This document shows, in pieces, positions 15,355 through 52,571 of a stretch of DNA of 64,000 nucleotides (positions are counted from its first letter, which is position 1; each line of letters starts with the position of its first letter). Under the pieces are notes generated by a model. The model saw only the letters and a program-made list of their open reading frames with translations, did not search any database and was not told the DNA's origin. The stretch covers positions 992,001-1,056,000 of the forward strand of contig NZ_CP133261.1 in assembly GCF_030931715.1 (NCBI RefSeq), read 5' to 3'. The translations under genes and the position numbers were made by a program. Source of the stretch: Tissierella sp. MB52-C2. Lineage in GTDB: Bacteria; Bacillota; Clostridia; Tissierellales; Tissierellaceae.

Positions 15355-16704
15355 ATGGATAGGATTGTAGGAGATAGATTTGAAGGCAAAATAATTGACT
15401 TTACCCATGAAGGTAATGGAGTATTAAAAGTTGATAATTTTGCAATTTTTGTTTCTGGTGGATTGATTGGTGATAAAGTAGTGGGTAAAATAGATGAGGT
15501 TAAAAAGAATTTTGCCATAGGATCAATAACTAATATTATAGAACCTTCTGAAGATAGAATAACACTAGATTTCAATATAGAAGAAGCAAGGGGAGGAATA
15601 CCTCTTGTTGAATATAAATATTCTAAGCAGTTAGGGTGGAAAAGGAATAAGGTAAAGATGGATCTTGCCAAGATTGCAGGATTAGCGGATGTAGAGGTAA
15701 AGGATACTATCGGTATGGATAACCCCTATGGATATAGAAATCATGTTCAAATACCAGTAGGTGAAAAAAATGGAAAAACAATTATTGGATTTTATGAACA
15801 AAATACTAATGACATAGTCAATATGAGTGGAAGTATACTTCAACCTGAAATAGGAAATAAGATAATAAAAATAATTAGATCTTGGATGGATAAATTCCAT
15901 ATAAAACCTTATAATAAAAAAACTAAAAAAGGAATTATTCGACATATAGGTATAAGAATTAATAAAGATAACAAGTCCATGGTAATTTTAGTAACAGGTA
16001 GTGATAAAATACCTTATGAGAAAGAATTAATAGATATGTTAATAGACGAGAACGTTATAAGTATCTATCAAAATATAAATAAATTAAACTCATCTCCTAC
16101 ATATGGAAAAGAATATAGAAAAATTTATGGAGAAGATAAATTATTAGATTATATAGGAGAGTACGAATTTTATCTATCACCTAACTCATTCTTCCAAATA
16201 AATAGGATTCAAGCAGAAGTAGTATACAATAAGGCTATGGAGTACTTAAATATAGATAAAGATGATATTATCTATGATTTATATTGTGGAATAGGAACCA
16301 TCTCTTTGTATATGGCAAAAGAAGCTAAGAAAATATATGGTGTGGAAGTAGTAAAGAAAGCCATAGAAGATGCTAAGGAAAATGCAAAATTAAACAATAT
16401 AGATAATGTTGAATTTATAGTAGGAAAAGCAGAAGAAGTATTTCCACAATTAATGGATAAAGGAATAAAGGGTAACAAGGTAGTAGTTGATCCACCTAGA
16501 AAAGGCTGCGAAAAAGAAGTTATAGAAGCCATTATAAAATTAAGTCCAGAGAAAGTTGTATATGTGTCCTGTAATTCTGCTACTATGGCTAGAGATGTGA
16601 AATGTTTGGTGGAGAATGGATATAAGGTGGAGGAAGTGCAGCCGGTGGATATGTTTCCGCATACTGGGCATGTGGAGTGCGTGGTTAAGCTTGAAAAGCA
16701 ATGA
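15355..16704 (+). CDS. rlmD: 23S rRNA (uracil-C5)-methyltransferase RlmD, TrmA family
   Basis: A 449-residue RNA m5U methyltransferase. An N-terminal TRAM domain (about residues 1-60) is followed by the SAM-binding fold: DLYCGIGTISLYMAK, then VVVDPPRKGCEKEV and the catalytic cysteine C406 in VYVSCNSATMARD. The usual FeS-cluster cysteines of E. coli RlmD are not apparent, as in many firmicute homologues, so the exact uridine (1939 or 747) is not certain. The last residues, DMFPHTGHVECVVKLEKQ, are important: the DNA at HVEC is the point where the downstream island joins, and at least seven alternative copies of this 3' end lie up to 36 kb away. GGAGG precedes the start. Confidence 0.9.
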   Translation: MDRIVGDRFEGKIIDFTHEGNGVLKVDNFAIFVSGGLIGDKVVGKIDEVKKNFAIGSITNIIEPSEDRITLDFNIEEARGGIPLVEYKYSKQLGWKRNKVKMDLAKIAGLADVEVKDTIGMDNPYGYRNHVQIPVGEKNGKTIIGFYEQNTNDIVNMSGSILQPEIGNKIIKIIRSWMDKFHIKPYNKKTKKGIIRHIGIRINKDNKSMVILVTGSDKIPYEKELIDMLIDENVISIYQNINKLNSSPTYGKEYRKIYGEDKLLDYIGEYEFYLSPNSFFQINRIQAEVVYNKAMEYLNIDKDDIIYDLYCGIGTISLYMAKEAKKIYGVEVVKKAIEDAKENAKLNNIDNVEFIVGKAEEVFPQLMDKGIKGNKVVVDPPRKGCEKEVIEAIIKLSPEKVVYVSCNSATMARDVKCLVENGYKVEEVQPVDMFPHTGHVECVVKLEKQ

Positions 16705-16729
16705 AATTAAGTAATATCAATAGTTTAGA

Positions 16730-16768
16730 CCATTGAGTGTGTGGATGACATTCGGTGGCTTTTATTTT
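16730..16768 (+). terminator. Terminator of rlmD, repeated at 33.98-34.02 kb
   Basis: CCATTGAGTGT at 16730-16740 and ACATTCGGTGG at 16748-16758 form an 11-bp stem (with G-U pairs), followed by CTTTTATTTT. The same hairpin with a few changes follows the fifth att-like unit near 33,983-34,020. Confidence 0.7.
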
Positions 16769-16953
16769 AGAAAATATTTTATACATTGGGATGAGCTGGT
16801 TAGTGTATAGGAAGTAATAGTATATGAAAAGTAAATAAGAAAATCTGACGAATAAACAAGAGAGAGCTTTGCATGTCTAGTATGTTGAAAATTGAACATG
16901 TGGCACAATATAGTTACATATTGTAAAAAATAGAGGGTTGGAGGATACTATAT

Positions 16954-18090
16954 ATGAAAAGTATATTTAAGAAGAAATTGGACAAACAAAATCATAATGC
17001 AATAGGCAAAATTTCGTTGAACTATGAAGATTTTGTGCTGATTAAAGAAGACTCGCAGTTATGTCAAAAAGTGTTAAAACAATATAGAAATGAATTTAAA
17101 ATGGCACATGATCCTTCAAAAATGATAAATATTTTGGAGTTTGGCTTGTATACTAATTTTATGAATGAAATATTTAATTTTTATAATAATGATATATGTA
17201 TAGAGGTAGCAAAAATATATGCGATGACTGAGGGACAAGGAGATTATAATTTTAGGGTAATCATGAATCTGATAGATACAGTCACATTAAAGATATGCTC
17301 TTGTTGGGAATATATTTTCCAAATACTCAATCAATATTTTTCGCTTGAACTAAATAGTTTGAGAATAAATAAAAATACAATAGATAAGATGTATGAAAAG
17401 AAGATGATCTTTGTCAAACAGGAAAAAGGATATAATGTTGAGTATGTTGAATGGTCAGAAGAAGAGAAAAATGAATTAGAGGATACATTGAGAAAGAAGA
17501 AAAAAGTATTAGATGTTAGGGGGCATGCGAAAAAATTTAAGAAGGAAATAAAAGATTCGGGATTTATTGTTAGTGATAGAGTTAAACAGATTTCAAAGTT
17601 ATATTCTAGTTCTTGTGTAAAGCTTCTAAAGGAAGAGGTAAGAAATATCATAACTCATAAAAAATCAGCTACATTTGGAATTTCGGTGGGAGATATTGAT
17701 AGAATTTTACCAATAGAGGGTATTTCAATAAATAGAGAGGGCTGGATGAAAATAGATAATTTTAAGAAGATTGTATCTGAAAATTTAGAAATTTTGAAAT
17801 TAGCTATTCAAACTGCTTTTGATATTATTTGTTTAGAAGACAAACTGGTAAGTGTTGGCAATGAGGGAAAGGAATATAGGATTTTACTGGTGGAATGCGA
17901 TAATTGTCATCATTCTACAAATATAACAAGTGGGTTTTATGCATTGGAAAATGAGAGGCATTTAGGCGTAAAGTGTTCTAAGTGTGGAACTCTAATGGAA
18001 ATATTGGAAGAAGGGGAAACTAGTGAATATGAGCACAAGCAAGTTTTGCTTAGACAATTAGAAGAATACTTTTGTAGAGTGGATAAATAG
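16954..18090 (+). CDS. HEPN-like protein with C-terminal zinc ribbon (Cthe_2314-like)
   Basis: A 378-residue protein, the only gene between rlmD and the first displaced rlmD end. The central region holds VRNIITHKK, giving R230-x4-H235, the RNase-type motif of HEPN domains; these domains are common in toxins and phage-defence proteins. The C-terminus has two cysteine pairs, C315/C318 in CDNCHH and C341/C344 in CSKCG, a likely zinc ribbon. The N-terminal half is helical (LYTNFMNEIFNFYNNDI) and unassigned. Resemblance to the Cthe_2314-type HEPN family is from memory. I infer a possible RNA-cleaving defence role because of the motif and the island setting; it could also be a non-catalytic HEPN protein. 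GTTGGAGG precedes the start. Confidence 0.55.
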   Translation: MKSIFKKKLDKQNHNAIGKISLNYEDFVLIKEDSQLCQKVLKQYRNEFKMAHDPSKMINILEFGLYTNFMNEIFNFYNNDICIEVAKIYAMTEGQGDYNFRVIMNLIDTVTLKICSCWEYIFQILNQYFSLELNSLRINKNTIDKMYEKKMIFVKQEKGYNVEYVEWSEEEKNELEDTLRKKKKVLDVRGHAKKFKKEIKDSGFIVSDRVKQISKLYSSSCVKLLKEEVRNIITHKKSATFGISVGDIDRILPIEGISINREGWMKIDNFKKIVSENLEILKLAIQTAFDIICLEDKLVSVGNEGKEYRILLVECDNCHHSTNITSGFYALENERHLGVKCSKCGTLMEILEEGETSEYEHKQVLLRQLEEYFCRVDK

Positions 18091-18399
18091 AGAAATAAAA
18101 AAGATTGTTTTATAGCCAAGTAAGACGACATAGTTTAGTGAGGGATATTTAATGATAAAGTATAGTAATAAATAACAAATCTTTTTTGAAATCACATTTT
18201 GATCAATTACAAACTATAAATAGATGACGGAATGTAGTAATAAAATTAGAAAGTATTTTTATGGAAAACTGTTAAGGCAAAACACCCAGTATGCTAGGGG
18301 CTTTATTGCTGGGAGTTTTTATTATTACTAAATAATATATATAATCTATATCATTATGTTATAAAAAGTAAAGATTGAATGGTAAAATTATTGAAAATA

Positions 18400-18498
18400 C
18401 ACTTTTCCACTAGGAGAGTAATATATACCTACGATATCTTTATTGTACTCTCAAGGCATGTGGAATTTATGATTCTGTTGCAACATAAAAACAACTAG
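18400..18498 (+). repeat. att-like unit 1: element end plus displaced rlmD 3' end
   Basis: The element-end sequence (CCACTAGG..., then ATCTTTATTGTACTCTCAAG) leads into GCATGTGGA. From 18,457 the frame reads HVEFMILLQHKNN and stops at 18,498, matching the position and pattern of the RlmD C-terminus HVECVVKLEKQ. It separates the HEPN gene from the phosphoesterase-ATPase gene. Confidence 0.7.
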
Positions 18499-18537
18499 AT
18501 TATAAGAAGAAAAATCAATATAAATGAAGTAAAATTA

Positions 18538-18573
18538 AGGATGTGAGAGTTAAAGCTTTCATATCCTTTTTTT
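18538..18573 (+). terminator. Rho-independent terminator
   Basis: AGGATGTGA at 18,538-18,546 and TCATATCCT at 18,559-18,567 form a 9-bp stem (one G-U pair) followed by six T residues. Confidence 0.7.
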
Positions 18574-18888
18574 ATACGTAACAATTGGAGATTTGATGTT
18601 GTAAATTGACAGAAAAGGTTATACAATGAGAATAATCATGTTGGCTATATTGTTAATTGGGTTGTACAACAGTCAAGGAATTATTATATAGAATAGCGTG
18701 ACCAAAGTAGCTAATGATATTTAAATCGTAATCTTTGGTAATGAGGTATGAGGTAACCCAGATGATTTAACGGAAATTATATATTATGATTCTATCAGGA
18801 ACACGGAGATTGAACGTATGGAATTTATTTTAAGACAATAGAAATCTATAATCAAGATAACAGAAATACTATTCGGGGGGAAAATATA

Positions 18889-21800
18889 ATGGAATTTAGA
18901 GTTTTGCATTTATCAGATGTGCATATTGGAAAAACATATAAGCCTTCTGAAAGTATCGCTTACAGGATTGTTTCGGATATTGAGCATAATAAAATGGCAG
19001 ATATTGATTGTGTAATAACAACGGGCGATATTTTTGAGGGAACTATAGAAACTAGTGAGACACTCATTAGAGAAGCTGTTAATTTTTATGAAATTATATT
19101 AAAAGAGATAAATTATAATCAAACAAAACAATTAGGCAAAACAGATTTTATTTTTGTTCCAGGTAATCATGACATAATAAGAACCGATAATATAGATGAA
19201 CGTTGGGAAAAGTACCATAGCTTTATTCAAATGTTTTATGAAACAATTCCTGAAAGCTATAATACGGATTTTTCTGTCTATAAACCTTATCACGATAACA
19301 AGATTGTTTTTATAGGATTTAATTCTTGCCAAATAGAAAATAAAAAAATATTTGATAAAGAATTTATCTCTAAGCTTAAAAGTAATTTGAGTAGTGAAGT
19401 TTTAGGTGATTATAACATCGATAGAGATAAATTAATTGAGATATTAGAAGAACAAAAGACCTCTGAATTTGATGATTATGGTAATATTTCTTTGCAACAG
19501 ATTGCTGATATTAAGAGGAAATTGAAGCAAGTTACTGACTATAATATAATTGCTTTATTTCATCATCATTTTTATTTATTTCCGGAGGTTTCTAAAAAGT
19601 TTGGTGACTCAAGTTTGATTAGGAATTACAGCGAGTTTATACAAGAACTAAAATACATGGGTGTTAAAACTGTTTTGCATGGACATAAACATTTTGACTT
19701 GGAGAGACCGTATATCTCAGATGATTATTATGATACAACTGAGAGTATCATTAATATATTTGCTGGGGGTTCCGTAGGAACGTCTAGAACCGATAGACAT
19801 ACCTTTAGCATTATAAATTTTTATGATAAAAAAGAAGATGTTAAGTTGATCCAAAAGAAATTTATTTATAATGGTGAATCACTTGAACCTATACAAACTA
19901 AACGAATTCCCCCTAAAAACACTTTAATTAAGGTAGTAAAGTTACTAGAACTTCTGAAGGTAAATAATCCAGATAAATTTAATGAATATCAATCCGTTGC
20001 CGAAAAAAATTACAGTATTTATAATGACTGTAATAAAATTATAGAATGGTTGAGTGAAATATTTACTGGTTTTAATGAAACCTATAAAATTCTTTATGAA
20101 AATGAAAAGAATATACTTTTTATCCTATATGCTGTAAATTATAGGACGCTAAAATATAAAGAAATTATTGAAAAAAATGATACAGAGTTCGAATCTAAAT
20201 CTACTCTTTTACAAGCGTTTTATAATAAAATTCTTAATGGACCAGATTTTCAAGTCTGCTCTAAGGACTTTCATGAATTGTTTAATTCAAAAAACCTTTC
20301 TGAATGTGCAAAGTATTGTGATGAACTTTTAAACTCAATAAATAAAAAAACTTCGCAGTATTATTTAGCATTGACAATGATAGCAATATTTTTTAGCGAT
20401 CTTTATCTTATATTGACAAAGTATGCTGATGACTTTAAACATAGTATAAAATACAAAGTAAATATTAAGATTGAAGATAATAAATTTCATGAAAATGTTC
20501 CTGCACCTAGAATTATTATTAATTCAGATTCAGACAGACGTAGCGCATATATTCAGTTACTCTGCAATGATGCTACAGCACATAAAATGGCAGTGCTTTT
20601 TATAAAAGAGTTTGATCTGATGATAAATAAATATGAAGACTATTTTAAACTTATTGGATTGAAACTATATTACTTATTACCTCAGATTAATAGTGATAAT
20701 GTTGAAAAAGCCTTGGATAATTATAACTTTGAAGCTTATATTCCAACATTGCTTCCTCTATTAACTGGAGATAATATTTATCCAGCAAAAGAAGTATTTG
20801 CCAGAGAATTAATTCAAAATTCAATTGATGCGATAGCTGTAAGAGAAGCGAAAGATACTATACAGTTTGCAAATAAAATATATATTGAGATAAGTAAAGA
20901 TGTTCAAGGTAGAAGATTTTTTAAAATTAAAGATAATGGGACAGGCATGGATCGTTATAAAATAGAGCGTTATTTTACTAGTATAGGAAGGAGTTTTTAT
21001 TCGGATGAAGAATACCAAGATTTAAATATTAGATACAAACCTATCAGTAATTTTGGAATAGGTTTTTTGTCATCATTCATGGTTTGCAGAGAAATTGATG
21101 TTAAAACTAGATATTATACGGAAGAAAGTGAAGCGCTAAAATTGCATATTCCCAATTATGAAGGATGTTTTTTTATTGAAAAAGAAAAGGGGGTAGATAT
21201 TGGTACAGAAATAATTTTATATCTAAACCATAATATAGAAAATAAGAAAATAGTTGACTATATCCAGGATACGATGCTTGATGTTAAATATGAAATAATT
21301 CTTAATTACACAAGTGATAAAGCTATTCAAGAAACTATTATCCCTGCACATAATCTTAGAAAAAAAGCTTTAAAAAGTGATTTTAAATTATTTGTACCTT
21401 TGTCAGAAGACTATAGCGCCCTTAAACTTGATTATGAGAAGGATATAATTAGCGGAAATTTTATATCAGAATACAAATATGGAATATTAATTCATAATAA
21501 TATTTCAGAAAAAAGAAGCGTTTTTAATGTGCTGAACGCAGGAATCTTAGTGCAACAAGCTTCACTTTCAAAATTATTTGGTAGAGGATTTGATAATGAA
21601 TACCAATCGAATATAAGAGATAAATTTTATTATAAAAGCAATATACTTGCAAATTTTCCTGCTAATTGGATACAATTAGATGTATCGCGTGAAAAACTAG
21701 TTGGATTTTCTGAGGATTTAAAAAAGATAATTGGGAAAGACATCCATTTATCTGTAGGGGTACAGATAGCAGAAGTTTTATTAGATCAAATACGTTGGAT

Positions 21801-22503
21801 ACTAAATAATAGTGAAAGTTCTGTTAGCCAAAACCCTGTTATTAATTTGCAAGAGGCTATTCTCTTTGCCATTGATTTTTGCAACCGTAGCAACAATACA
21901 GAAATTTACAAAAAACTGTTAGTTCTAAAATATATATTACATATTGATTTCACGAAAGAAGAGATAGTTTTTGCTTTGGGGCATAAAGGCGACTGTAAAG
22001 AAAGAATTAATGTCACTTATAGCGCAGAAATGTCAAGAAAAAATATAAATGAACTACTTGAAAGAATTGGGACATTAGATTTTAGAGAAGATCTTTATAT
22101 TGATAGCATTCATAAAAATGACATAAGAGAAATTCATCCAATGCTAGTTAGAGAGTTCTACAGATTCCTTGAAGAGTTTGTAATAACTAGGGACATTAAA
22201 ATGAGTAAAAATTTTAGATATAAGTTTGAACAAATTATTCATACAACTAGTTTTAGTGAATCAGATCAAGCAGATGATATTTTAAAAATTATAGCTATTA
22301 TTATGTTATTATATTTAGATAAACAAGGAGAGTTACAAGAAAATTTAATTGAAAAGTCACCTATTGTTAGCATTATTGAGCGCATACTTATGGAGAGAAT
22401 AAATATCCGTGATGTAGAAGAAAAGTCTGCTAGTATAATTATAAAATATGAAGAACTTAATGAATTATTTGAATTAAGGAAACACATTGATAAATTGAAG
22501 TAA
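18889..22503 (+). CDS. Calcineurin-like phosphoesterase fused to an Hsp90-type (GHKL) ATPase
   Basis: A 1204-residue two-domain protein filling one att-bounded segment alone. The N-terminal domain (about 1-330) has all metallophosphoesterase motifs: D10 and H12 in LSDVHIGK, D47 in TTGDIFEG, N93-H94-D95 in PGNHD, H225-H227 in LFHHHFYL, and H266/H268 in HGHKH. A helical linker follows. From about residue 610 comes a GHKL ATPase: N-box N644 in RELIQNSIDAI, the D682-N-G-T-G motif, GIGFLSSF at 723-730 and a GTEIILYL motif, then an Hsp90-like middle region (WIQLDVSREKL). This suggests ATP-gated control of a nuclease or phosphodiesterase. Related HSP90-like/NACHT-free fusions appear in defence islands; its role here is inferred. 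GGGGGG lies before the start. All key residues are present. Confidence 0.75.
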   Translation: MEFRVLHLSDVHIGKTYKPSESIAYRIVSDIEHNKMADIDCVITTGDIFEGTIETSETLIREAVNFYEIILKEINYNQTKQLGKTDFIFVPGNHDIIRTDNIDERWEKYHSFIQMFYETIPESYNTDFSVYKPYHDNKIVFIGFNSCQIENKKIFDKEFISKLKSNLSSEVLGDYNIDRDKLIEILEEQKTSEFDDYGNISLQQIADIKRKLKQVTDYNIIALFHHHFYLFPEVSKKFGDSSLIRNYSEFIQELKYMGVKTVLHGHKHFDLERPYISDDYYDTTESIINIFAGGSVGTSRTDRHTFSIINFYDKKEDVKLIQKKFIYNGESLEPIQTKRIPPKNTLIKVVKLLELLKVNNPDKFNEYQSVAEKNYSIYNDCNKIIEWLSEIFTGFNETYKILYENEKNILFILYAVNYRTLKYKEIIEKNDTEFESKSTLLQAFYNKILNGPDFQVCSKDFHELFNSKNLSECAKYCDELLNSINKKTSQYYLALTMIAIFFSDLYLILTKYADDFKHSIKYKVNIKIEDNKFHENVPAPRIIINSDSDRRSAYIQLLCNDATAHKMAVLFIKEFDLMINKYEDYFKLIGLKLYYLLPQINSDNVEKALDNYNFEAYIPTLLPLLTGDNIYPAKEVFARELIQNSIDAIAVREAKDTIQFANKIYIEISKDVQGRRFFKIKDNGTGMDRYKIERYFTSIGRSFYSDEEYQDLNIRYKPISNFGIGFLSSFMVCREIDVKTRYYTEESEALKLHIPNYEGCFFIEKEKGVDIGTEIILYLNHNIENKKIVDYIQDTMLDVKYEIILNYTSDKAIQETIIPAHNLRKKALKSDFKLFVPLSEDYSALKLDYEKDIISGNFISEYKYGILIHNNISEKRSVFNVLNAGILVQQASLSKLFGRGFDNEYQSNIRDKFYYKSNILANFPANWIQLDVSREKLVGFSEDLKKIIGKDIHLSVGVQIAEVLLDQIRWILNNSESSVSQNPVINLQEAILFAIDFCNRSNNTEIYKKLLVLKYILHIDFTKEEIVFALGHKGDCKERINVTYSAEMSRKNINELLERIGTLDFREDLYIDSIHKNDIREIHPMLVREFYRFLEEFVITRDIKMSKNFRYKFEQIIHTTSFSESDQADDILKIIAIIMLLYLDKQGELQENLIEKSPIVSIIERILMERINIRDVEEKSASIIIKYEELNELFELRKHIDKLK

Positions 22504-22555
22504 AAAAATCATATGTACTGTAGATTTTTAAAGGTGATAAAAAAGCAAAGATTCC

Positions 22556-22690
22556 CTTCCGCCAAGGCTCTACTAGGCTCAAATGACATCATTATTGTAC
22601 TCTCAAGGCATGTTGAGTGTGTTACACTGATAGAGCGAATTTGGAGAGTTTAATATGTTCCCTCAGACTAATAAGTTTGAGGGAACTTTT
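22556..22690 (+). repeat. att-like unit 2: element end, displaced rlmD 3' end and terminator
   Basis: The element end (CCGCCAAGG..., then ACATCATTATTGTACTCTC) is followed by AAGGCATGTTGAG. From 22,609 the frame reads HVECVTLIERIWRV and stops at 22,653, a convincing RlmD C-terminus. A terminator hairpin follows at 22,657-22,690 (GTTCCCTCAGA with TTTGAGGGAAC, then TTTTGTTT). The same terminator recurs after units 3 and 7. Confidence 0.8.
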
Positions 22691-22929
22691 GTTTAGGGGG
22701 TCGTACTTTTGCGCAGAACTAAAAATATGTGCAGAAATGCCAGAGGTTTTGAATATAACTAAGAAAGAATATACATAACAAGTTTATATAAAATAATAGA
22801 GTATGCTCCGTAAGGGGTATACTCTATCTATATGATAACTCATGGTAAAGAAAAAGTCTATTAATTTATTTATTTTTACCTTATAATTTCTATTGTCGCA
22901 ACAAATAAAGATTTTGAGAGGAGAAAATT
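22691..22929. other. Leader region of the flavin reductase gene
   Basis: GGGGGTCGTACTTTTGCGCAG after the terminator recurs in degenerate form near 23,545 and 23,740. An inverted repeat, GAGTATGCTCCGT with a GGGGTATACTC arm near 22,800-22,828, resembles a terminator. No gene is seen. Confidence 0.35.
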
Positions 22930-23478: not shown

Positions 23479-23584
23479 ACAATGATTATACTACCTGCAA
23501 AATATTGTTGCGTAAAAGAGCATGACAACAGAACTTAACGACCCCCTTAATTATGGGGGTACATCTTTACGCAAAATTAGATTT

Positions 23585-23740
23585 AATGCGTATTAGTATC
23601 ATTTTTCTATCAAAACACATGTTGAGTGTGTTATGTTGATCGTTAAGGAATAGGCTGGTTCTAAGAGTTTTGAAGTTTTTTAGATAAAAATTGAATTGTT
23701 TTTATGTTCCCTCAGACTAATAAGTTTGGGGGAATTTGCT
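23585..23740 (+). repeat. att-like unit 3: displaced rlmD 3' end and terminator
   Basis: The element-end part is eroded, but from 23,618 the frame reads HVECVMLIVKE and stops at 23,653. A terminator close to that of unit 2 follows at 23,706-23,736 (GTTCCCTCAGAC... GTTTGGGGGAA). After it, ACGCAGAA and TTCTGCGT (about 23,758-23,783) form an 8-bp hairpin. Confidence 0.7.
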
Positions 23741-43765: not shown

Positions 43766-43773
43766 ATTTGATT
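43766..43773. repeat. 8-bp target duplication, right copy (ATTTGATT)
   Basis: Exact copy of 41,141-41,148, immediately outside the CGCTTAC end of the IS66 element. Confidence 0.93.
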
Positions 43774-44411: not shown

Positions 44412-44510
44412 AAAGTAGTCATCCTCTCATATTTTCCTCTTATCTTTGTGTCTACTTTATTATACCACGTCCAGTTTTTTATTATTTACACTGTCTACTT
44501 GACAGGGGCA

Positions 44511-45250
44511 TGTTCAAATATTTGAGGGTTTTGTTGCTTACAATTTTGATACAAATGGTATTATTAAAATGTATTAGTAACATCAAGTATCAAAGTGCAA
44601 GGAAATACTTATCTATAGATATAGCGAGTAAGATAGTGGCAGAAATAAAAAAATATGTGTAATAATCGGTAGAGTTTCAGAAATATAGACTTCCGCTAAG
44701 GGGATAATACCAACTTATGACATCATTATTATCCCCTCAAGGCACTTAGAGTGCGTGGTGGGAATACAGAAGATTATCTAATAGGAAAATATAGAGAGAT
44801 GGCTAATTATCAAAGGAAACAACATGTTGTAATGAGGTTTATTCATGAGGAAAAATATATTGTTTTTAATGATATTGGAAAAGGCAGAAGAAAAAAGGAA
44901 GTATATGATGGGATTGAGGTTATTATAGCTATGAATTAATGTTAAAGTTAAAAAGAACTTGAGTGGGCATATAACGCATAAGCTGTACACATATTTTAAT
45001 GGTGATTATATAAAAAAACCATATTTAAAAGATTTTAAATTAGAGAAACAACTTAATAATACAAAAATAGGAAAATATATTTATTACCTCATTCTGTACT
45101 TTTAGGATGGATAAATGCAAGAGTACACTCAAAAGGGACACTGTTAATTATAATTATTTGATGATTCAAAAAATGACTAGAGAGTGATACAATGATATTA
45201 ATAAATTAATGACGTCTGGGTAATATAAGGCGAATTAAATGGAGGATATT
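44511..45250. other. Gap holding att-like unit 6 and decayed frames
   Basis: It starts with a relic frame ending FEGFVAYNFDTNGIIKMY (44,520-44,577), then SARKYLSIDIASKIVAEIKK (44,600-44,660). Att-like unit 6 follows. A frame near 44,830-44,939 (MRFIHEEKYIVFNDIGKGR then RKKEVYDGIEVIIAMN) may be a small gene or fragment; no family was recognised. Confidence 0.4.
44670..44781 (+). repeat. att-like unit 6: element end plus displaced rlmD 3' end
   Basis: TTCCGCTAAGGGGATAATAC starts the conserved element end, followed by ACATCATTATTATCCCCTC and AAGGCACTTAGAG. From 44,743 the frame reads HLECVVGIQKII and stops at 44,781. Upstream bases TTTCAGAAATATAGAC match those before unit 5. Confidence 0.7.
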
Positions 45251-45577
45251 ATGGTAGGAAAGTATAAAATAATAACTTTGTGCAGGAGTACGAGGTTTAA
45301 AGATGAGTTCTTGAAAGTACAAAAACAATTAACTCTAGAAGGGAATATAGTTATTTCAGTAGGATTGTTTGGACATGCTGATGGTGAGTTTAAAAATGTC
45401 ATCACTCCTGAAATTAAAGTAATGCTTGACGATATACATAAAAGAAAAATTGATATGTCTGATGAAATTTATGTGATTAACAAAAACGGATATATAGGCG
45501 AAAGTACAAAAGGTGAAATAGAATACGCTATAAAGACTAGAAAAAGAGTTAATTATTTAGAGTGCCATAATGCTTAG
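45251..45577 (+). CDS. Nucleoside 2-deoxyribosyltransferase-like protein
   Basis: A 108-residue protein (start at 45,251, just after GGAGG). KIITLCRSTRFKDEFLKVQ at the start, MLDDIHKRKIDMSDEIYVIN and GYIGESTKGEIEYA match small proteins related to nucleoside 2-deoxyribosyltransferases, which have a Rossmann-like fold and bind nucleotides. Family members usually read CGSTRF; here the glycine is arginine (CRSTRF), which could disturb the nucleotide-binding loop. Such proteins occur in phages and mobile elements. Function not established. Confidence 0.7.
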   Translation: MVGKYKIITLCRSTRFKDEFLKVQKQLTLEGNIVISVGLFGHADGEFKNVITPEIKVMLDDIHKRKIDMSDEIYVINKNGYIGESTKGEIEYAIKTRKRVNYLECHNA

Positions 45578-45870
45578 TCTGTTTCGCAATGTTTATAAAC
45601 TGCGAACCTAAACATTATTTATGATTAACATCATAAGGTCTGATTTTAGCGTTTCTGAGTTTTACTCATTAAGAATTAAGACAAACTCACTCTTTTATAA
45701 TAAATGAGAAAAATTTATAAGGAGAAGTACTTAAGTAAGTAATTTAAGGATGTAGTATAATAAATCTTTAAAAATATATGAAGAAAAGGTGATGAAAATG
45801 AGCAAGTAATAAAAAGTACCTAAATTATAATAGTGATAAATATAATACTATTTATTGAAAGGAAGATTTT

Positions 45871-46512
45871 ATGAAAAAGGTAGCTGTGATGATTTATCCA
45901 TATTTTTCTATGCAAGAAATTTCATGTTTAACAGATGCGTTAAAAGTGTTTTTCAATGTTGATATGGATGTATTTGCTTCTTCTAAAGAAATCATTAAGA
46001 GTGAAGATGGTTTTCAAGTTATTGCAAACAAAACATTTGATGAATTTAGTTTAGAAGAATATAATTGCTTAGTTTTACCTGGTATTTGGAATCCCATTCC
46101 CGCTTTATTTGATGAAAAAAACATTGAATTTTTAAAGTCTATAAAAGGGAAAGATATTTTAATTTCAAGTATATCTAGTTCACCGATGCTATTAGCTAAA
46201 GCAGGATTATTAGATGATGTTCATTTTACTAGTGGAGTTTTTGATGAGGTATGTCAACATCTTGATTTTATTCCTTATCAAAATATTATTCATCAACCGG
46301 TTGTAAGAGATAAAAACTTTATAACTGCAATAGGTTTTGCTTACAGAGATTTTGCAGTTGAGACAATAAAAGCTTTGGGAATTGATGAATGCGAAGGTGG
46401 ATTATTTAATGGAGTAACCAGAGAATATACAGAAGAGGAGCTAACTTTTAAAATGGGTGAAGATCATTTCAAAGAATTTATGAATGAATATAATAATTAT
46501 ATGAAGAAATAA
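45871..46512 (+). CDS. DJ-1/PfpI family protein with serine at the nucleophile position
   Basis: A 213-residue protein of the DJ-1/PfpI (class I glutamine amidotransferase-like) superfamily: VAVMIYPYFSMQEISCL at the start, CLVLPGIWNPIPAL in the middle and ISSISSSPMLLAKAGLL at the nucleophile elbow. Most members have cysteine in this elbow (C-x-G/S-P-x-L-A). Here the residues are SSSP, so cysteine-based hydrolase or glyoxalase activity is unlikely. It may be a regulatory or structural homologue. GAAAGGAAG precedes the start. It stands alone. Confidence 0.8.
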   Translation: MKKVAVMIYPYFSMQEISCLTDALKVFFNVDMDVFASSKEIIKSEDGFQVIANKTFDEFSLEEYNCLVLPGIWNPIPALFDEKNIEFLKSIKGKDILISSISSSPMLLAKAGLLDDVHFTSGVFDEVCQHLDFIPYQNIIHQPVVRDKNFITAIGFAYRDFAVETIKALGIDECEGGLFNGVTREYTEEELTFKMGEDHFKEFMNEYNNYMKK

Positions 46513-46932
46513 AAAATTATAGCCTGAGCTTGTCTTAATCTAAATTATTACAAACTTGGCCAAGTAGCTGTAACCATTTAAATTCAGCCACTTAAAGGGA
46601 TCCTGTAAAAATAATGCTTTGATTTATAATGTTAAGCTTGTCATAATATTTATATAAGTATCATTATGACAAATTTCGTGAGACCATTTAATGTAACTAG
46701 TCAAATATAACTTATATGTTGTGCATCAAAAATCCAACAAGTTGCTTGCTGAATTTTTATAGTATTAAAATATTATAGAGATATTTTAGAAGGTAGAGGC
46801 AAGATTGATTCAGAACGAATTAAACTAAGTGTATTGAGGTAGTATGCAATCCATAATACCAGAAGACTAAATACTACTATAGATGATGAAATATAGATGG
46901 ACTTCCCAAAATTAAAAATCAATTTTAAAGAT

Positions 46933-46966
46933 AATCTTGATAGATAAAAATATCAAGATTATTTTT
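46933..46966 (+). terminator. Rho-independent terminator-like hairpin
   Basis: AATCTTGATA at 46,933-46,942 and TATCAAGATT at 46,951-46,960 form a perfect 10-bp stem followed by ATTTTT. Confidence 0.7.
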
Positions 46967-47077
46967 CTCTGTATTTTTATTTATCTTTCAAAAATGGTTG
47001 TCAAAATGCCTTTCTTATTGCCTACACAGTAGGGAGTAAATTTTATTCTAATAAATAATTCTAAATTTAGACTTCAT

Positions 47078-47190
47078 AAATCACCCTCTAAATGTGGAAA
47101 CATATAGAGGGTGATTTTTATTTTAAATATTTTTAAATTACACTTCAAAATAGAGGCTCAAATGTGGAAACAAGTAAGGAGGTGAATTTT
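47078..47190 (+). promoter_or_regulatory. Leader hairpin and direct repeat before the RepA-like gene
   Basis: AAATCACCCTCTA at 47,078-47,090 and TAGAGGGTGATTT at 47,105-47,117 form a perfect 13-bp stem whose loop contains AATGTGGAAACA. The same loop sequence recurs at 47,161-47,172 right before the ribosome binding site AAGGAGGTGAATTTT. The second copy lacks the matching left arm. It may be an attenuator or a target for an antisense RNA that controls copy number. Confidence 0.45.
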
Positions 47191-47192
47191 AA

Positions 47193-48197
47193 ATGATAAA
47201 AAGATTTAACACCATTGATGGTGAAACTTTGATGACCATGCCACTAAAACCAATAAACTTCATTATTGAAGACATGTTATCAGAAGGACTTCATATCTTA
47301 GCTGGCTCACCTAAGGTAGGAAAATCATGGCTTGCTCTTTGGTTATCTGTTGCAGTATCAAAAGGAGAAGATGTATGGGCAAACAAAGTTAAGCAAGGTG
47401 ATACCTTGTATTTGTGTTTTGAAGATAGTCAAATCAGAATACAAGATAGACTCTTTGATATTACTGATGAAGCAACAAAGACTGTAAACTTTTGCACTGA
47501 AAATGCTTTACTTGGAGGAGAATTAGAAGATAGGATTGTAACGTTTATTACAGAGCATCCAGATACTGTTCTAATCATTATAGACACCCTTCAGATGATA
47601 AGAAATACAAGTAAAGATAATAACTATGCCAGTGATTATAGCGATTTAACTATACTAAAAAAATTGGCAGATAAATATGGGATTGCTATTCTACTAATCC
47701 ATCACTTAAGAAAAGAAAATGACAAAGATCCATTTAACCGTATATCAGGTACAACAGGAATACAGGGAGCTGTAGACAGTAGTTTTATTTTAGTAGAAGA
47801 AACTAGAGGTAGTGGAGTTGCTACTTTATCTTGTGTTGGTAGAGATATTGATTATCGTGAGATTAAGTTAAAACGTGGTGAAGATAATATTTGGCAAGTA
47901 ATATCTGATAGTTTTGAAAATCATGATTTATTGTTAGATGATATTGTTATTCTTCTTTCTGATTTTATGAAAGATAAAGATTATCATAAATCTACACCTA
48001 CAGAACTAGCTGATGAATTATCTAAAAACAGGGACGATAATATTTCTTCAAAGACCCTTACAAAAAAGATACTACAAAATACTATGGAGCTTGAGAAACG
48101 TTGTATCTCTGTAGTTATTCGAAAGAGCAATGGAAAAAGATTGATTGAAATTGCTAGAAATAGGGACGATAGGGTCGATGAAATGAGTACCCCCTAA
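47193..48197 (+). CDS. RepA-like AAA ATPase of an integrative element
   Basis: A 334-residue protein with an AAA_25/RepA helicase-type domain: Walker A AGSPKVGKSWLALWL near residue 37-51, Walker B VLIIIDTLQMI, the sensor-like LLIHHLRKE, and GTTGIQGAVDSSFIL. Proteins like this act as replicative helicases on mobilizable plasmids and integrative elements. The C-terminal part (TPTELADELSKNRDD...) may be a winged helix. AAGGAGG lies before the start. Iteron-like repeats and a palindrome follow within 500 bases, fitting a replication module. The end of the protein (DDRVDEMSTP) is a little abrupt but not clearly truncated. Confidence 0.82.
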   Translation: MIKRFNTIDGETLMTMPLKPINFIIEDMLSEGLHILAGSPKVGKSWLALWLSVAVSKGEDVWANKVKQGDTLYLCFEDSQIRIQDRLFDITDEATKTVNFCTENALLGGELEDRIVTFITEHPDTVLIIIDTLQMIRNTSKDNNYASDYSDLTILKKLADKYGIAILLIHHLRKENDKDPFNRISGTTGIQGAVDSSFILVEETRGSGVATLSCVGRDIDYREIKLKRGEDNIWQVISDSFENHDLLLDDIVILLSDFMKDKDYHKSTPTELADELSKNRDDNISSKTLTKKILQNTMELEKRCISVVIRKSNGKRLIEIARNRDDRVDEMSTP

Positions 48198-48708
48198 GTC
48201 CTCAAAATGATGACCCTCATGACCCTTATGATCCTGGAAAACTAATAACAAATGAACTAGTATGAATTTCAGCAATCGTCTGCCCCAGTGTCCCCTTGTG
48301 TGGCATTGAAACTGGAGAAGTGGAGTAGTAACACCTAATGGCTAATAAAATGACTTGTGGAGCAGATGTGCTTATAAAGTATAATTGGAACAATTGAAAT
48401 AAAAAAGATTAAAAAACAAATTAATATTACATTATTCTACCAAAATGGAAGCTGGACTTCCCAATCTATTTTGGTGCAGGATAAAGGAAGGTGGTCAAAA
48501 GATTCCACCTTCCAGCCACATCCCCCGGCAGTGCCGTGGGTTGAAAGAATAAAGATAGGTGGTCAGAATTAGGGTTTTGTGTCAGCTTAGGTGGTCAGAA
48601 ATGATAAAAACCACCATAAATAGGTATTTGTTGGTGTCACCTATATGTGGTCAAAGAAAGTTTAAGGGGGAATTATATAAAAGTTATAGATAAGATTGGA
48701 GGTTTTCA
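48198..48708. other. Possible origin region with iteron-like repeats
   Basis: No gene. The 12-base motif AGGTGGTCARAA occurs at 48,489, 48,557 and 48,589, with a weaker copy at 48,645 (ATGTGGTCAAAG) and an inverted ACCACC near 48,611. CCCCGGCAGTGCCGTGGG near 48,524-48,541 is a GC-rich near-palindrome. Position after a RepA-like gene suggests an origin of replication or transfer. Confidence 0.5.
48489..48656 (+). repeat. Four iteron-like copies of AGGTGGTCARAA
   Basis: Copies start at 48,489 (AGGTGGTCAAAA), 48,557 (AGGTGGTCAGAA), 48,589 (AGGTGGTCAGAA) and 48,645 (ATGTGGTCAAAG). All are in the same orientation, and spacing is 68, 32 and 56 bases. Confidence 0.6.
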
Positions 48709-48963
48709 ATGAAAAAGAAATTAAGATCACTGTGGAAGAAAATAAAAATAATTTTAAAAGATAATAAAGGTGAAGGAGATATAGAAACAGTTAAAAATAT
48801 TCTCTTCACTCCAATAGGGTATAAATTTCTAAAGAATAATATAGAAAAATATAGTTTACAAATAGGGATGTTAAATCGACTATTAAAAGAAGAATTAATT
48901 TCAGAAAAAGAACATTCAACTATAAGAAATGGTATAAAGAAGAAATATGAAATAAAAGAGTAA
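48709..48963 (+). CDS. Small SHOCT-like protein upstream of the recombinase
   Basis: An 84-residue basic protein. The C-terminal half, QIGMLNRLLKEELISEKEHS followed by IRNGIKKKYEI, has the SHOCT-like pattern (a short helix, L/I-S/T-E-x-E, then a second helix) common in small proteins of mobile elements. The N-terminal half is lysine-rich (KKKLRSLWKKIKIILK). GGAGG precedes the start. It probably acts with the recombinase or in element control, but this is guesswork from position. Confidence 0.55.
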   Translation: MKKKLRSLWKKIKIILKDNKGEGDIETVKNILFTPIGYKFLKNNIEKYSLQIGMLNRLLKEELISEKEHSTIRNGIKKKYEIKE

Positions 48964-49120
48964 TAAAGAAATAAAAAATAGGAAAAAAATAAAATATGTT
49001 ACAACAGGCTAACCTTCACTATTTTATTTTCTGCGTTTATTCTTTTAATTTCCTAGAATAAGTACAGAGATAGAAACTCTAAGACGCTGATAACTAGCTT
49101 GACTAAGAAGAATCTTCTAT

Positions 49121-49162
49121 CTATAATCCTTGTAATCCATGGTAGGGATACAAGGATTATAG
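49121..49162. promoter_or_regulatory. 14-bp perfect hairpin just before the recombinase gene
   Basis: CTATAATCCTTGTA at 49,121-49,134 and TACAAGGATTATAG at 49,149-49,162 are perfect inverted copies around a 14-base centre (ATCCATGGTAGGGA). The repeat ends 25 bases before the recombinase start. It has no T tract, so it may be an operator or a recombinase binding site rather than a terminator. Confidence 0.5.
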
Positions 49163-49186
49163 ATTAAAAGAAAGGTTGGTGAGAAA

Positions 49187-50881
49187 ATGAGTAAAGTGCA
49201 AATAATTCAAGCACAGAAAGAGAGAATTGATAGAAATACAGGCAAGGTAGTAAATAAATTGCGTGTAGCAGCTTATTGTAGAGTAAGTACAGATTCTGAT
49301 GAACAAATGAACAGCTATCAATCCCAAGTAAATCATTACACAGAATTAATTAAGAAGAATAAGGAATGGGAATTTGTAGATATCTATGCTGATTCAGGAA
49401 TATCAGGTACCCAATCAAATAATAGAGATGAGTTTCAAAGGATGATATCTGATGCCAATAATGGCTTAATAGACATAATAATTACTAAATCTATATCTAG
49501 ATTCGCTAGGAATACTATGGACACATTAAAATATGTTAGAATGTTAAAAGATGAAAATGTATCAATAATCTTTGAAAAAGAAAATATAAATACCCTAACA
49601 ATGAATGGGGAAATGCTATTAACTATACTGAGTTCCTTAGCACAACAGGAAAGTGAATCCCTTTCTGCCAATACTAAAATGGGTCTTAAAATGAAGATGA
49701 AAAGGGGAGAGTTAGTGGGACAAGCTTCTTGTTTAGGTTATGATTATGACAAGGAAGAGAAAAAGTTAATTATAAATGAAGAGGAGGCAAAAATAGTAAG
49801 ATATATATTCAATAGATATACAAGTGGAATAGGATGCTTTGTACTAGAAAGAGAACTTACAGAAATGAGAGCAAAAACCAAGAAGGGCAATACAACCTGG
49901 TCAGATTCATCTGTCAGAGGAATTATTAAAAATGAAAAATATGTGGGAGATATCCTTATGGGAAAGACCTTTACTCTAGATCCAATAAGTAAAAGAAGAT
50001 TAGATAACTTTGGTGAAGAAGAAAAGTATTATATTAAAAATAATCATGAACCCATTATATCAAGGGAACAATTCAATAAAGCAAAAGAAATATTAGAAAA
50101 GAGAAGTAGAAACCATAACCAAGGAAGAATGAAAAAACATAGCTTAAAATATGCCTTTTCTAGCATGATGAAATGTGCCTATTGTGAGGGAAATATTACC
50201 AGAAGAAGATGGCATAGTGGATCCAACAAACAAAAAGATGTCTGGTTCTGTACAACTGCAATAAGAAAAGGAAAGAAGTCTTGCCCTGAATGCAAGGCAG
50301 TAGAGGAAAAAATAATAGAAAATGCCTTTGTTAAAGCCTTCAATATTTTATGCACTGATAACAAAAGCATAGTAGAAGAATTCCTAGAAAATATAGAGAA
50401 AGAACTACAGTCAAAAGATAATAAAAAGCTACTAAATAGAATAGATGGGGATATAAGAAATATAGAGAATAAAATAAGTAAACTCCTAGATTTGCACTTA
50501 GAAGATAAAATAGATAAAGAAAACTATGAGGTAAAATATACCGAACTAAAGAAAGAACTCCAAGAACTAAAAATAGAAAAGGAAGAATTAGATATAGTAG
50601 AAGATGAAGAAAAAACTATTAAAGAAAGAATAGCATCCTTCAGGAAACTATTTGAAAGCAAAGAACCACTAATAGAATTTGATAGGGAAGTATTTAAAAC
50701 TGTAGTGGAGGAAGTTATAATAGGTGGGTATAAAGAAGATGAAAGTATAGATCCTTATATGCTGACCTTCATATTTAATACAGGCTTAACTAGCAAAATT
50801 AATGGACATAAACAAATTTCTAAAAGTGAGCAAAATGCAGGTTTACAAAAATGCACCTATCAAGAGGACAACCCAAGTTGA
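49187..50881 (+). CDS. Large serine recombinase (site-specific integrase)
   Basis: A 564-residue recombinase. The resolvase domain contains LRVAAYCRVSTD with the catalytic Ser34, then YADSGISGTQSNNRDEFQ and the arginine motif TKSISRFARNTMD. The recombinase domain follows (GYDYDKEEKKLIINEEEAK). A zinc ribbon comprises MKCAYCEGN with CPECKAVE, and then comes a long coiled coil (KKELQELKIEKEELDIVED). All expected parts are present. It is the only complete integrase in the window and lies in the last segment of the rlmD island, so it is the best candidate for the enzyme that recognises the repeated att-like units. GAAAGGTTGGTG precedes the start. Confidence 0.9.
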   Translation: MSKVQIIQAQKERIDRNTGKVVNKLRVAAYCRVSTDSDEQMNSYQSQVNHYTELIKKNKEWEFVDIYADSGISGTQSNNRDEFQRMISDANNGLIDIIITKSISRFARNTMDTLKYVRMLKDENVSIIFEKENINTLTMNGEMLLTILSSLAQQESESLSANTKMGLKMKMKRGELVGQASCLGYDYDKEEKKLIINEEEAKIVRYIFNRYTSGIGCFVLERELTEMRAKTKKGNTTWSDSSVRGIIKNEKYVGDILMGKTFTLDPISKRRLDNFGEEEKYYIKNNHEPIISREQFNKAKEILEKRSRNHNQGRMKKHSLKYAFSSMMKCAYCEGNITRRRWHSGSNKQKDVWFCTTAIRKGKKSCPECKAVEEKIIENAFVKAFNILCTDNKSIVEEFLENIEKELQSKDNKKLLNRIDGDIRNIENKISKLLDLHLEDKIDKENYEVKYTELKKELQELKIEKEELDIVEDEEKTIKERIASFRKLFESKEPLIEFDREVFKTVVEEVIIGGYKEDESIDPYMLTFIFNTGLTSKINGHKQISKSEQNAGLQKCTYQEDNPS

Positions 50882-50992
50882 ATCCATAATCATGTTGCAA
50901 AAGAAAGAGTGAAAAAGTACCAATTATTATATACTATATTTTCTATATGTATAATTAATAATTATTACATATAAGGAAAGGGGGAGATTAAT

Positions 50993-51705
50993 TTGTTTAA
51001 TTCACCAATGTTTATGCCAACAGCAATTTGTATAGGAATAATTCCAGTTAGTATATTCTTGTTAATAACAACTGTATTAAATATGAATGAAAATAGAGAG
51101 GAAGGTTATATCTTAGTTAATAAAGTTAATTACTGGATTGAATGTTTTGAAGAGTTTACTTTATCAATATTTACTATAATATCAGGAGCGTACATATACT
51201 ACTGTTTTGAAAGCAGTGATATTTTGCAAAATATTTTTTGGGTCCATATGCTACAATTATCATGTTGGTGATTATTGTAATATCTATATTAGTTATGAAT
51301 ATGATAAGTAATAACTTTAGCCTTACGATTAGTACAGAAGAAAAGACTAGCTTGAGATTGCTAGGGAGTATTTATGCAGTAATTAATTTGATTATTATTC
51401 GAATAATTGTATCTGATGCTGAATTAGATGCAATTACAATTTGTTATATCGGATTATTACTTGGAAGGTTTATATTTTTTGATACTTCTATTAGTTCCAT
51501 AATAATAGAATTCAAAAATATTGGAAGAAAAGCCATACTATTAATTGTAATGGGAGCATATGTGTCGGTTTTACTATTTTGGTATAAGAAAAATGGAGTT
51601 GATATAGTTGGCAATAATATGATATTTCAGTTTGCTATAATATATTGTGCGATGATTTTTGGATTAAAAGCTGCTAAGGATATAAATACCAAAATATATC
51701 TATAA
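50993..51705 (+). pseudogene. Membrane protein split by a frameshift in a T6 run
   Basis: Two overlapping frames (50,993-51,271 and about 51,238-51,705) each encode membrane segments, and together they would make a single protein of about 235 residues. The first ends EVSSDIL-type sequence into NIFWVHML, and the second continues GPYATIIMLVIIVISILV. The switch lies at TTTTTT 51,234-51,239, where a one-base change restores one frame. At least five hydrophobic segments are visible. No family is recognised. AAAGGGGGAG precedes the TTG start at 50,993. It could be a sequencing error, a true pseudogene or phase variation. Confidence 0.55.
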
Positions 51706-52571
51706 TGAATATATAAGTTTATTGTAAAAAGCAAATTGTATTGTAAGTTAATTATAACTCATAAAGTGATAAATAAGATTGAGGGTACAATAAGAATATG
51801 CTTATTTATGTTCCCTACATATGTTATAATTACCTCCTAAAAAATCGAGAATAGATAAAAATACAATTGAGGTATAGCTGAAATTTGAGAAATATTGCTA
51901 AGATAGTAATTACATTTAACACTATACGATATAGTAACAAAATTGACGAAACTTATTTTATTGACTATTCAATATTCTGTTATTTTATTGAAAGGTATAG
52001 GCTAGGCGTGGAGTTGTAATATAAAATAACAAGATATATTTATAAACTATCTAATTATACTGATAGTTAAAGAAGATAATTTATGATAAGAAGTTTAAAG
52101 ATTTAAATAGTCCTACATTGGTTGGTTTTATATTAAAGGCATGAGAAGAGTTATAGGAATTAACCTAGTAAACAGAATGAGTGTTGTATATGAAATTTAT
52201 GAAAATAGAAATTAACTTTGCATATCTGAATAATTATTGAGATAAATATTTAATAACTGTAGAAAAGGATATAATTTAAAGTTATTATAATTTTGAATAC
52301 CATACCATCAAGGGGGTAATATCAGCTCACGACATCTTTATTATTACTGTGGAGTGTGTTGTCCTGATAGAGAAGGAATAGGTTGGAATAGCAGGGTTGA
52401 GGGGGGGCAAGTAAATATGTAGGTGTGTTTTATGTTCCCTTAGATGATAAGTTTAGGGGAAATTTTGTTAGGGGTTTATTCAATATGCAAAAATGATACT
52501 ATTTGGCAAAAAGAATATGATATAATAATATTAACTAGTTTGGGTTAATAATAGGGTTTAGGAGTGATGGT
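51706..52571. other. Gap with att-like unit 7 at the right edge of the island
   Basis: From 51,706 to 52,280 there are no genes; AT-rich sequence with stops in all frames. Att-like unit 7 and its terminator occupy 52,300-52,470. A possible promoter (TATAATAATATTAAC region near 52,520) precedes the nuclease gene. Confidence 0.4.
52300..52470 (+). repeat. att-like unit 7: probable original rlmD 3' end with terminator
   Basis: The element end (CCATCAAGGGGGTAATATCA, then ACGACATCTTTATTATTACT) joins GTGGAGTGTGTT directly, having lost the CTCAAGGCAT bases. From 52,349 the frame reads VECVVLIEKE and stops at 52,381. This is the most RlmD-like ending of all copies. A terminator (GTTCCCTTAGATGATAAG, then TTTAGGGGAA and TTTTG) at 52,434-52,466 matches those of units 2 and 3. 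Confidence 0.75.

What the first reader, a model, noticed from the sequence alone, without database searches (positions are those of the whole stretch)
16669..52381. Array of displaced rlmD 3' ends divides a 36-kb island into att-bounded defence and accessory segments
After the native RlmD end (HVECVVKLEKQ-stop), seven short copies follow: HVEFMILLQHKNN (18,457), HVECVTLIERIWRV (22,609), HVECVMLIVKE (23,618), HVESIILMTYCGL (23,976), HCEVVVKLEKNETE (33,923), HLECVVGIQKII (44,743) and VECVVLIEKE (52,349). Each is in frame to a stop. All but the third are preceded by the same element end (ACCAAGGGG..., ACATCWTTATTGTACTCTC, AAGGCATGTTGAG). Established: the rlmD/rumA 3' end is an integration site for mobile elements in firmicutes. 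Inference: repeated integration by one recombinase family has stacked elements, most carrying one to a few plus-strand cargo genes, so the locus works like an integron-like cassette array at rlmD. Several segments hold a single cargo gene.
Basis: partly seen in the sequence, partly recalled or inferred. Interest (0 to 1): 0.93.

Follow-up and report, generated by a model that had tools for sequence, protein, structure and literature searches.

The report
Serine-recombinase gene-cassette array at rlmD
Behind the rRNA-methyltransferase gene rlmD this bacterium carries a row of at least 18 DNA segments, about 270 kilobases in all, whose borders share one 50-base sequence followed by a spare copy of the rlmD tail; serine recombinases likely stacked them there, and the arrangement would let small genes, antiviral defences among them, pass between species much as integron cassettes do.

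Summary
A matrix trained on other genomes finds 18 such sites over 273 kb behind rlmD, all in rlmD's orientation; sites score above 30, nulls below -18. A second cluster follows another RlmD paralog. In relatives, 45 of 46 sites on contigs with an RlmD-type gene lie downstream of it on its strand. Copy 7 matches the native-type rlmD 3' end plus terminator of relatives.

Best reading: accretion at rlmD by large serine recombinases, many segments being recombinase-free cassettes (53 of 63 lack any trace) that would move in trans. One cassette recurs, 98.6% identical, in another genus-level lineage with unrelated flanks. Elsewhere the arm goes with a recombinase triplet whose middle member lacks the catalytic domain; this genome has no triplet and one intact enzyme in the array. 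Excision and movement are inferred. Integration at rum/rlmD and short tandems are known in streptococci; my searches found no long cassette arrays there. New variant of a known kind.

The parts
15355..16704 (+). rlmD; its last codons (CATGTGGAG..., from about 16,669) are the present junction with the first segment
   Evidence: orthologs in relatives; tail resembles copy 5 over 83 bp, 80% (D5)
16705..18456 (+). Segment 0: one gene (16,954-18,090, 378 aa, no Pfam or PADLOC hit) and arm 18,401-18,456
18457..22608 (+). Segment 1: tail HVEFMILLQHKNN, one gene of 1204 aa (calcineurin-like phosphoesterase plus HATPase domain), arm 22,553-22,608
22609..23617 (+). Segment 2: tail HVECVTLIERIWRV with native-type terminator, flavin-reductase-like gene (22,930-23,478)
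23618..23975 (+). Segment 3: tail HVECVMLIVKE with native-type terminator, degenerate arm before it, no gene; arm 23,920-23,975 at its end
23976..33922 (+). Segment 4: TYCG-type tail, type I restriction operon with a PrrC-like gene (26,194-33,140), remnant of the middle recombinase B (33,550-33,663), arm 33,867-33,922
33923..44742 (+). Segment 5: tail HCEVVVKLEKNETE, a 924-aa gene without hits, AbiJ_NTD4/PDC-S32 gene, AbiH gene, minus-strand insertion-sequence genes, arm 44,687-44,742
44743..52348 (+). Segment 6: tail HLECVVGIQKII, DJ-1/PfpI gene, AAA_25 ATPase (47,193-48,197), large serine recombinase; arm 52,299-52,348 with the core deleted
49187..50881 (+). Intact large serine recombinase (564 aa: Resolvase, Recombinase, zinc ribbon), the only intact one in the array; 93% identical to two in G003
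52349..64000 (+). Segment 7 (continues to about 79,967): tail VECVVLIEKE with the native-type rlmD terminator, PDC-S11-like gene (52,572-53,561), insertion sequences, LanM-type gene (59,780-62,587)

Best explanation
It is a tandem array of segments at the 3' end of rlmD, likely stacked there by large serine recombinases that join an element's arm-and-tail site to the last codons of the gene, so that each arrival would give rlmD a new tail and push the old one downstream. Shown by sequence: the tails, the common ~50-bp arm, the single orientation, a native-type 3' end displaced downstream, a second cluster at another RlmD paralog, the scarcity of recombinase genes. Inferred: many segments are non-autonomous cassettes [rlmD tail - cargo - arm] excised and integrated in trans by recombinases of visiting conjugative elements or prophages (the triplet) or by the single enzyme at 49,187-50,881; the order outward from rlmD is roughly newest to oldest; the array acts as a store of defence and accessory genes whose units pass between species.
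For: 18 one-way sites far above all nulls. 45 of 46 sites in relatives behind RlmD-type genes on the same strand; in ten genomes of one or two contigs 17 of 18, null mean 1.3, maximum 6 of 18 in 2000 draws (the 200-kb limit was mine). Native-type 3' end plus terminator displaced to 52,349. Elements with identical right ends diverge just after CA, the centre of the arm-tail inverted repeat (16.2 of 23 matches for 20 TYCG-class tails, 10.8 for 89 others, 6.7 random). In 10 of 13 complete triplets (hand count) an arm lies 6-28 kb downstream on the same strand. 53 of 63 segments have no recombinase trace, 26 of 27 of those up to 3.6 kb. One cassette 98.6% identical in another lineage with unrelated flanks. 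The single-enzyme element sits directly at an RlmD paralog in G003.
Against: No circle or single-segment excision was seen. Only one unit shared end to end with unrelated flanks was found in the arrays I fetched, and a search of 248 genomes found no third copy. Its ends do not fall at the core: identity runs 50 bp into the neighbour's arm on the left and stops about 30 bp before the core on the right. This genome has no triplet and one intact array recombinase. Three of 13 triplets have no arm downstream, and streptococcal triplets are reported for other targets (mutT, traG, hsdM; PMC4701971, passages). Scores fall with distance only suggestively (rho -0.45, p 0.06, n 18).
Confidence: 0.7

Rival explanations
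1. Plain accretion and decay: successive ICEs, IMEs and prophages integrated at rlmD and lost their recombination and transfer genes, leaving att-bounded remnants (CIMEs) that no longer move alone. The small segments are leftovers, not cassettes.
For: Remnants are visible: a recombinase-B piece in segment 4 and recombinase pieces in 7 of the 63 segments beside the 3 with a long one; large segments; degenerate distal sites. This route is described for streptococci (PMC5704250, passages).
Against: 26 of 27 segments up to 3.6 kb show no recombinase trace; one two-gene unit recurs between lineages with unrelated flanks; short segments hold intact-looking single genes and toxin-antitoxin pairs.
Confidence: 0.23
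2. The tails and arms were multiplied by ordinary duplication or homologous recombination between repeats, not by site-specific integration.
For: Tails are related, and the shared cassette's breakpoints lie inside the arms rather than at the core, as exchange between arms might give.
Against: Tails differ strongly in DNA while arms are conserved across genera; identity in other pairs stops at the core; arms are linked to serine recombinases; cargo differs in each segment.
Confidence: 0.05
3. A true integron: cassettes captured by a tyrosine integrase at attC-like sites.
For: Layout: one-way array of small genes next to a fixed platform.
Against: None of the six tyrosine-recombinase hits in the genome lies in the array; the site is linked to serine recombinases.
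Confidence: 0.01

Closest known systems
rum/rumA/rlmD-targeting ICEs, IMEs and prophages of streptococci (phi-m46.1 type, ICE_rumA, Tn5252 type)
   Same: Same last codons of the same gene: attB GCATCACGTGGAGTGTGT in phi-m46.1 (PMC4288039, passages), flanking repeat CAGACGCATCACGTGGAG (PMC13214566, passages). An S. suis rum prophage record carries the same arm, inverted, as family-f4 elements. Serine recombinases.
   Different: There one element or a tandem with about three att sites (PMC5053989, passages) and single integrases whose gene overlaps attR (PMC4701971, passages); here no ORF of 150 codons or more overlaps any of 109 arms, and arrays reach 18 sites of mostly recombinase-free segments.
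CIMEs and accretion islands
   Same: Segments bounded by att sites without recombination genes (definition seen in PMC5704250, passages).
   Different: Number, small size and one recurring unit suggest reuse as cassettes rather than passive remnants.
Staphylococcal cassette chromosome (SCC) composite islands
   Same: From general knowledge: large serine recombinases (Ccr), 3' end of an rRNA-methyltransferase gene (rlmH), composite islands with defence genes.
   Different: Different target gene and recombinase subfamilies; many more, smaller units here. No SCC sequence was compared.
Chromosomal integron cassette arrays
   Same: From general knowledge: one-way arrays of one-to-few-gene cassettes next to a platform; similar kinds of cargo.
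   Different: Serine instead of tyrosine recombinases; a double-stranded dyad site with a gene tail instead of attC; each unit brings a new 3' end to the target gene.

Membership tests
Accretion array of site-specifically integrated elements (ICE/IME/CIME) at a gene 3' end | Tandem segments bounded by related att sites in one orientation at one gene | tested here: met
   18 sites + strand, 0 - strand; 45 of 46 in relatives
Accretion array of site-specifically integrated elements (ICE/IME/CIME) at a gene 3' end | Target gene 3' end replaced, old end displaced to the far side | tested here: met
   Copy 7 aligns with the rlmD 3' end and terminator of G015 and G004
Accretion array of site-specifically integrated elements (ICE/IME/CIME) at a gene 3' end | Elements excise as circles | not testable with these tools
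   Needs reads or PCR
Streptococcal single-integrase rumA ICE | attR lies inside the serine-integrase gene | tested here: not met
   0 of 109 arms overlapped by an ORF of 150 codons or more
Integron | Tyrosine integrase next to the array | tested here: not met
   Six PF00589 hits in the genome, none between 1.00 and 1.30 Mb or near 0.16 Mb
Integron | attC sites folding as single strands | not tested
   No folding or covariation test was run
Integron | Mobile cassettes of one to few genes without recombinase | tested here: inconclusive
   31 of 63 segments have 1-3 ORFs of at least 100 aa, 27 of these without recombinase trace; one unit recurs elsewhere; movement not shown
SCC | Integration at rlmH by Ccr recombinases | tested here: not met
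   The target is rlmD-type genes; Ccr identity was not compared

The most novel reading that the evidence does not exclude
A serine-recombinase counterpart of the integron: rlmD-type genes are the fixed platform, a ~50-bp arm plus a spare rlmD tail is the cassette site, and one-to-few-gene cassettes without recombinase circulate among Clostridia in trans on a recombinase triplet, one member of which has lost its catalytic domain and may act as a targeting or directionality subunit. Arrays of up to 18 sites and 273 kb serve as an ordered store of defence and accessory genes.
Probability: 0.42. Interest if true: 0.92.

Novelty: new variant of a known kind. Interest (0 to 1): 0.8.

Why it matters
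If recombinase-free units really circulate, Clostridia have an integron-like gene-capture system built on another recombinase chemistry and on a housekeeping rRNA-methyltransferase gene. That would explain how single defence genes and toxin-antitoxin pairs spread there, and it gives a searchable tag (arm plus tail) that delimits such cassettes: 44 of 249 genomes of the order and 21 of 398 sampled from the phylum carry it (both counts include this genome). The recombinase-like middle protein without a catalytic domain is a testable puzzle in serine-recombinase control.

Tried and rejected
Hairpin (attC-like) reading of the arm: I saw an internal dyad but ran no covariation or folding test; left open. 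Arm as the 3' end of a recombinase gene, as in streptococcal rumA ICEs: rejected. Tyrosine recombinase as driver: rejected for this genome. Native right-hand neighbour of rlmD: not found, since the DNA directly downstream differs in the relatives compared. Carriers of the arm among plasmids and phages: one match in a 2.6-Mb record of the plasmid collection, four weak matches (E 8e-3) in S. suis phage records, and two viral contigs. Crossover in the middle of the arm, suggested by the shared cassette: not general, as other pairs break at the core; unexplained.

Limits of the counts. One search used the 97 sites outside G000; 51 had no RlmD-type hit on their contig and were set aside. The triplet count was made by hand and leaves out two partial clusters (G003:C116, G032); the 20 genomes were chosen because they carry arms. 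The 63 segments come from arrays that I fetched, not from all genomes with arms. Pfam was run on 30 of the 48 ORFs of short segments listed; 28 of 30 had a family. In one search I wrongly set aside one 3.2-kb segment as recombinase-bearing; one search recounts without that. The output was cut, so I read only part of its 30 right-end and 267 left-end pairs, which also share sites and are not independent. The search pattern asks for CAYNTNGA after the arm, so HVE-like first codons of pattern-found tails are partly selected for; the rest of each tail and its stop are not. The strand excess of ORFs (348 kb against 47 kb) was not corrected for leading-strand bias. Species names for G001-G004 and G013 rest on equal contig lengths.
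Full report
Observation. The seven displaced rlmD tails are at the stated positions, each in frame to a stop. Six have the shared element end, here called the arm: about 50 bp, consensus CCACCAAGGGGATA...ACGACATCWTTATTGNNNNCTCAAGG, directly before CAYGTNGAG. On a position matrix trained on 95 sites of other genomes, five window sites score 65-94. The arm before 52,349 has lost the core by a short deletion and scores 7. The tail at 23,618 has only a degenerate arm. Minus strand, reversed and complemented sequence and five Markov simulations of the 404-kb region peak between -18.9 and -33.0.

Extent. The window lies in a 3.89-Mb chromosome of one contig. The array goes on beyond the window: 18 sites from 1,010,457 to 1,283,462, all on the + strand, none on the other. 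A pattern match without the outer half of the arm lies at 1,300,706. A second cluster (160,911; 164,091; 185,080) follows another RlmD paralog at 157,087-158,403, whose own C-terminus is a TYCG-type tail. An RlmD-like gene inside the array (1,221,408-1,222,514) ends in VVTLLVKE, a tail also seen after arms, and an interrupted RlmD-like piece lies at 1,116,142-1,116,503.

Distribution. With one mismatch allowed the arm pattern occurs in 44 of 249 genomes of the order and 21 of 398 sampled from the phylum, this genome included in both; the reversed control occurs in none of the genomes listed. Named records with exact matches include Tissierella, Sedimentibacter, Anaerocolumna, Lacrimispora, Maledivibacter, Fusibacter, Anaerotignum and Geosporobacter. 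Of 97 sites outside this genome, 46 share a contig with an RlmD-type gene, and 45 of these lie downstream on its strand within 200 kb (median 22.5 kb). The exception is an inverted site in G196. In ten genomes of one or two contigs 17 of 18 do so, against a mean of 1.3 and a maximum of 6 in 2000 random placements.

The displaced 3' end. The rlmD of G015, a relative without the arm pattern, ends in codons and a terminator that align with copy 7 over about 150 bp; G004 has the same end. Copies 2 and 3 and the sites at 1,118,630 and 1,244,795 also score above shuffles against it. The present rlmD tail scores little above shuffles (62, largest shuffle 58) and instead resembles copy 5. That G015 is an empty site is inferred. 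Upstream of rlmD the relatives compared are syntenic; directly downstream they differ.

Where the exchange happens. Elements of family f4 (G068, G175, G176) and, inverted, an S. suis prophage record have right ends identical up to the core and differ right after CA. The arm and TYCG-class tails are inverted repeats around this point: 16.2 of 23 positions match for 20 such tails, 10.8 for 89 other tails, 6.7 for random DNA. By general knowledge this is the form of a large serine recombinase attP. In streptococci the same codons of rum are a published integration site (PMC4288039, passages).

Recombinases. PF07508 finds four places in this genome: one intact enzyme in the array (49,187-50,881, near an AAA_25 ATPase), a broken piece at 164,112 in the second cluster, and two distant genes. 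The array enzyme has 93% identical relatives in G003, one of them behind an RlmD paralog that ends in a VVGIQK tail like that of segment 6. Elsewhere the arm goes with a triplet: A (520-547 aa) and C (524-556 aa), and between them B (305-308 aa, or 138 aa in G192). In the one triplet scanned, A and C have resolvase, recombinase and zinc-ribbon domains and B lacks the resolvase domain that holds the catalytic serine. Counted by hand, 10 of 13 complete triplets in 20 arm-bearing genomes have an arm 6-28 kb downstream on their strand, five of them at 7.8 kb; G221, G041 and G003:C54 do not. Both viral contigs found by the arm pattern have B and C before the arm (one also a complete A), with ABC-three-component or other ATPase genes between. 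A piece of B lies in the window at 33,550-33,663.

Segments. From the arrays fetched I delimited 63 non-redundant att-to-att segments, median 4.4 kb: 12 hold one ORF of at least 100 aa, 31 hold one to three, 21 hold six or more, one holds none. Recombinase-like stretches occur in 10 of 63, a long one in 3; 26 of the 27 segments up to 3.6 kb have none. Cargo of short segments (30 ORFs scanned): NUDIX, GNAT, methyltransferase, DUF1697, DUF218, DegV, GFA, amidase, alpha/beta hydrolase, ABC ATPase, AAA helicase, AbiEi/AbiEii, Fic, HepT with a nucleotidyltransferase, and one recombinase remnant. In the window: a phosphoesterase-HATPase gene, a flavin reductase, a type I restriction operon with a PrrC-like gene, AbiJ_NTD4/PDC-S32, AbiH and a PDC-S11-like gene.

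A recurring unit. In G004 the second gene is split into two ORFs. No third full copy was found in 248 genomes. On the left, identity runs through the neighbour's arm (50 of 50) and stops there; on the right it stops about 30 bp before the core, inside the arm. Pairs of arms at least 48 of 50 alike with unrelated upstream DNA are 12 of 5671, this pair included. So the unit is bounded by the arms but not cut at the core in this pair, which I cannot explain; a second exchange between arms is possible.

Shown and inferred. Shown: target, site, orientation, displaced native-type end, linkage to recombinases, one recurring unit. Inferred: integration by triplet or single enzymes, in trans for segments without one; newest next to rlmD; use as a gene store. 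Site scores fall with distance only suggestively (rho -0.45, p 0.06, n 18).

Known and new. Integration at rum/rumA/rlmD, tandem accretion with about three att sites, and CIMEs are in print (passages of PMC4701971, PMC5053989, PMC5704250, PMC13214566). Nine answered searches listed no paper that, by title and start of abstract, describes long arrays of small recombinase-free segments at rlmD; preprints and most subscription journals are not in that library. I rate it a new variant of a known kind and leave the integron-like reading open.

Noticed in passing
L240:1735-2661, L241:1168-2085, G004:C19, G192:C1: The middle protein of the recombinase triplet is recombinase-like; in L240 it has no resolvase (catalytic) domain, and in G192 it is only 138 aa.
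   Followed up: partly
G000:C1:1221408-1222514 and 1116142-1116503: An RlmD-like gene with its own P-type tail, and an interrupted RlmD-like piece, lie inside the array: elements may carry their own landing site.
   Followed up: partly
window 18889-22503: 1204-aa protein with a calcineurin-like phosphoesterase and an HSP90/gyrase-type ATPase domain, no PADLOC hit, alone in its segment; a 69% similar stretch lies in G199:C13. Possible unlisted defence gene.
   Followed up: partly
window 23976-24226: About 230 bp behind the TYCG-type tail are conserved next to rlmD-type genes in many genomes of the order; function unknown.
   Followed up: no
KT336321.1:51719-51755: An S. suis prophage record carries the arm in inverted orientation; annotated drug-resistance genes lie beside it.
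   Followed up: partly
G196:C1:1700398: The only arm found in inverted orientation relative to its RlmD-type gene, among 46 testable.
   Followed up: no
e.g. G002:C35, G226:C2, G003:C84: A second kind of serine-recombinase triplet, all three members about 500-570 aa, occurs in several of these genomes; no arm was listed near the ones I looked at.
   Followed up: no
window 37840-38017: Piece reading SHKNADIHININVEFGDEEGQ, like the long tails after some arms in other genomes (L071, L096, L241): probably a further decayed junction inside segment 5.
   Followed up: no
window 59780-62587: LanM-type lanthionine synthetase gene in segment 7.
   Followed up: no
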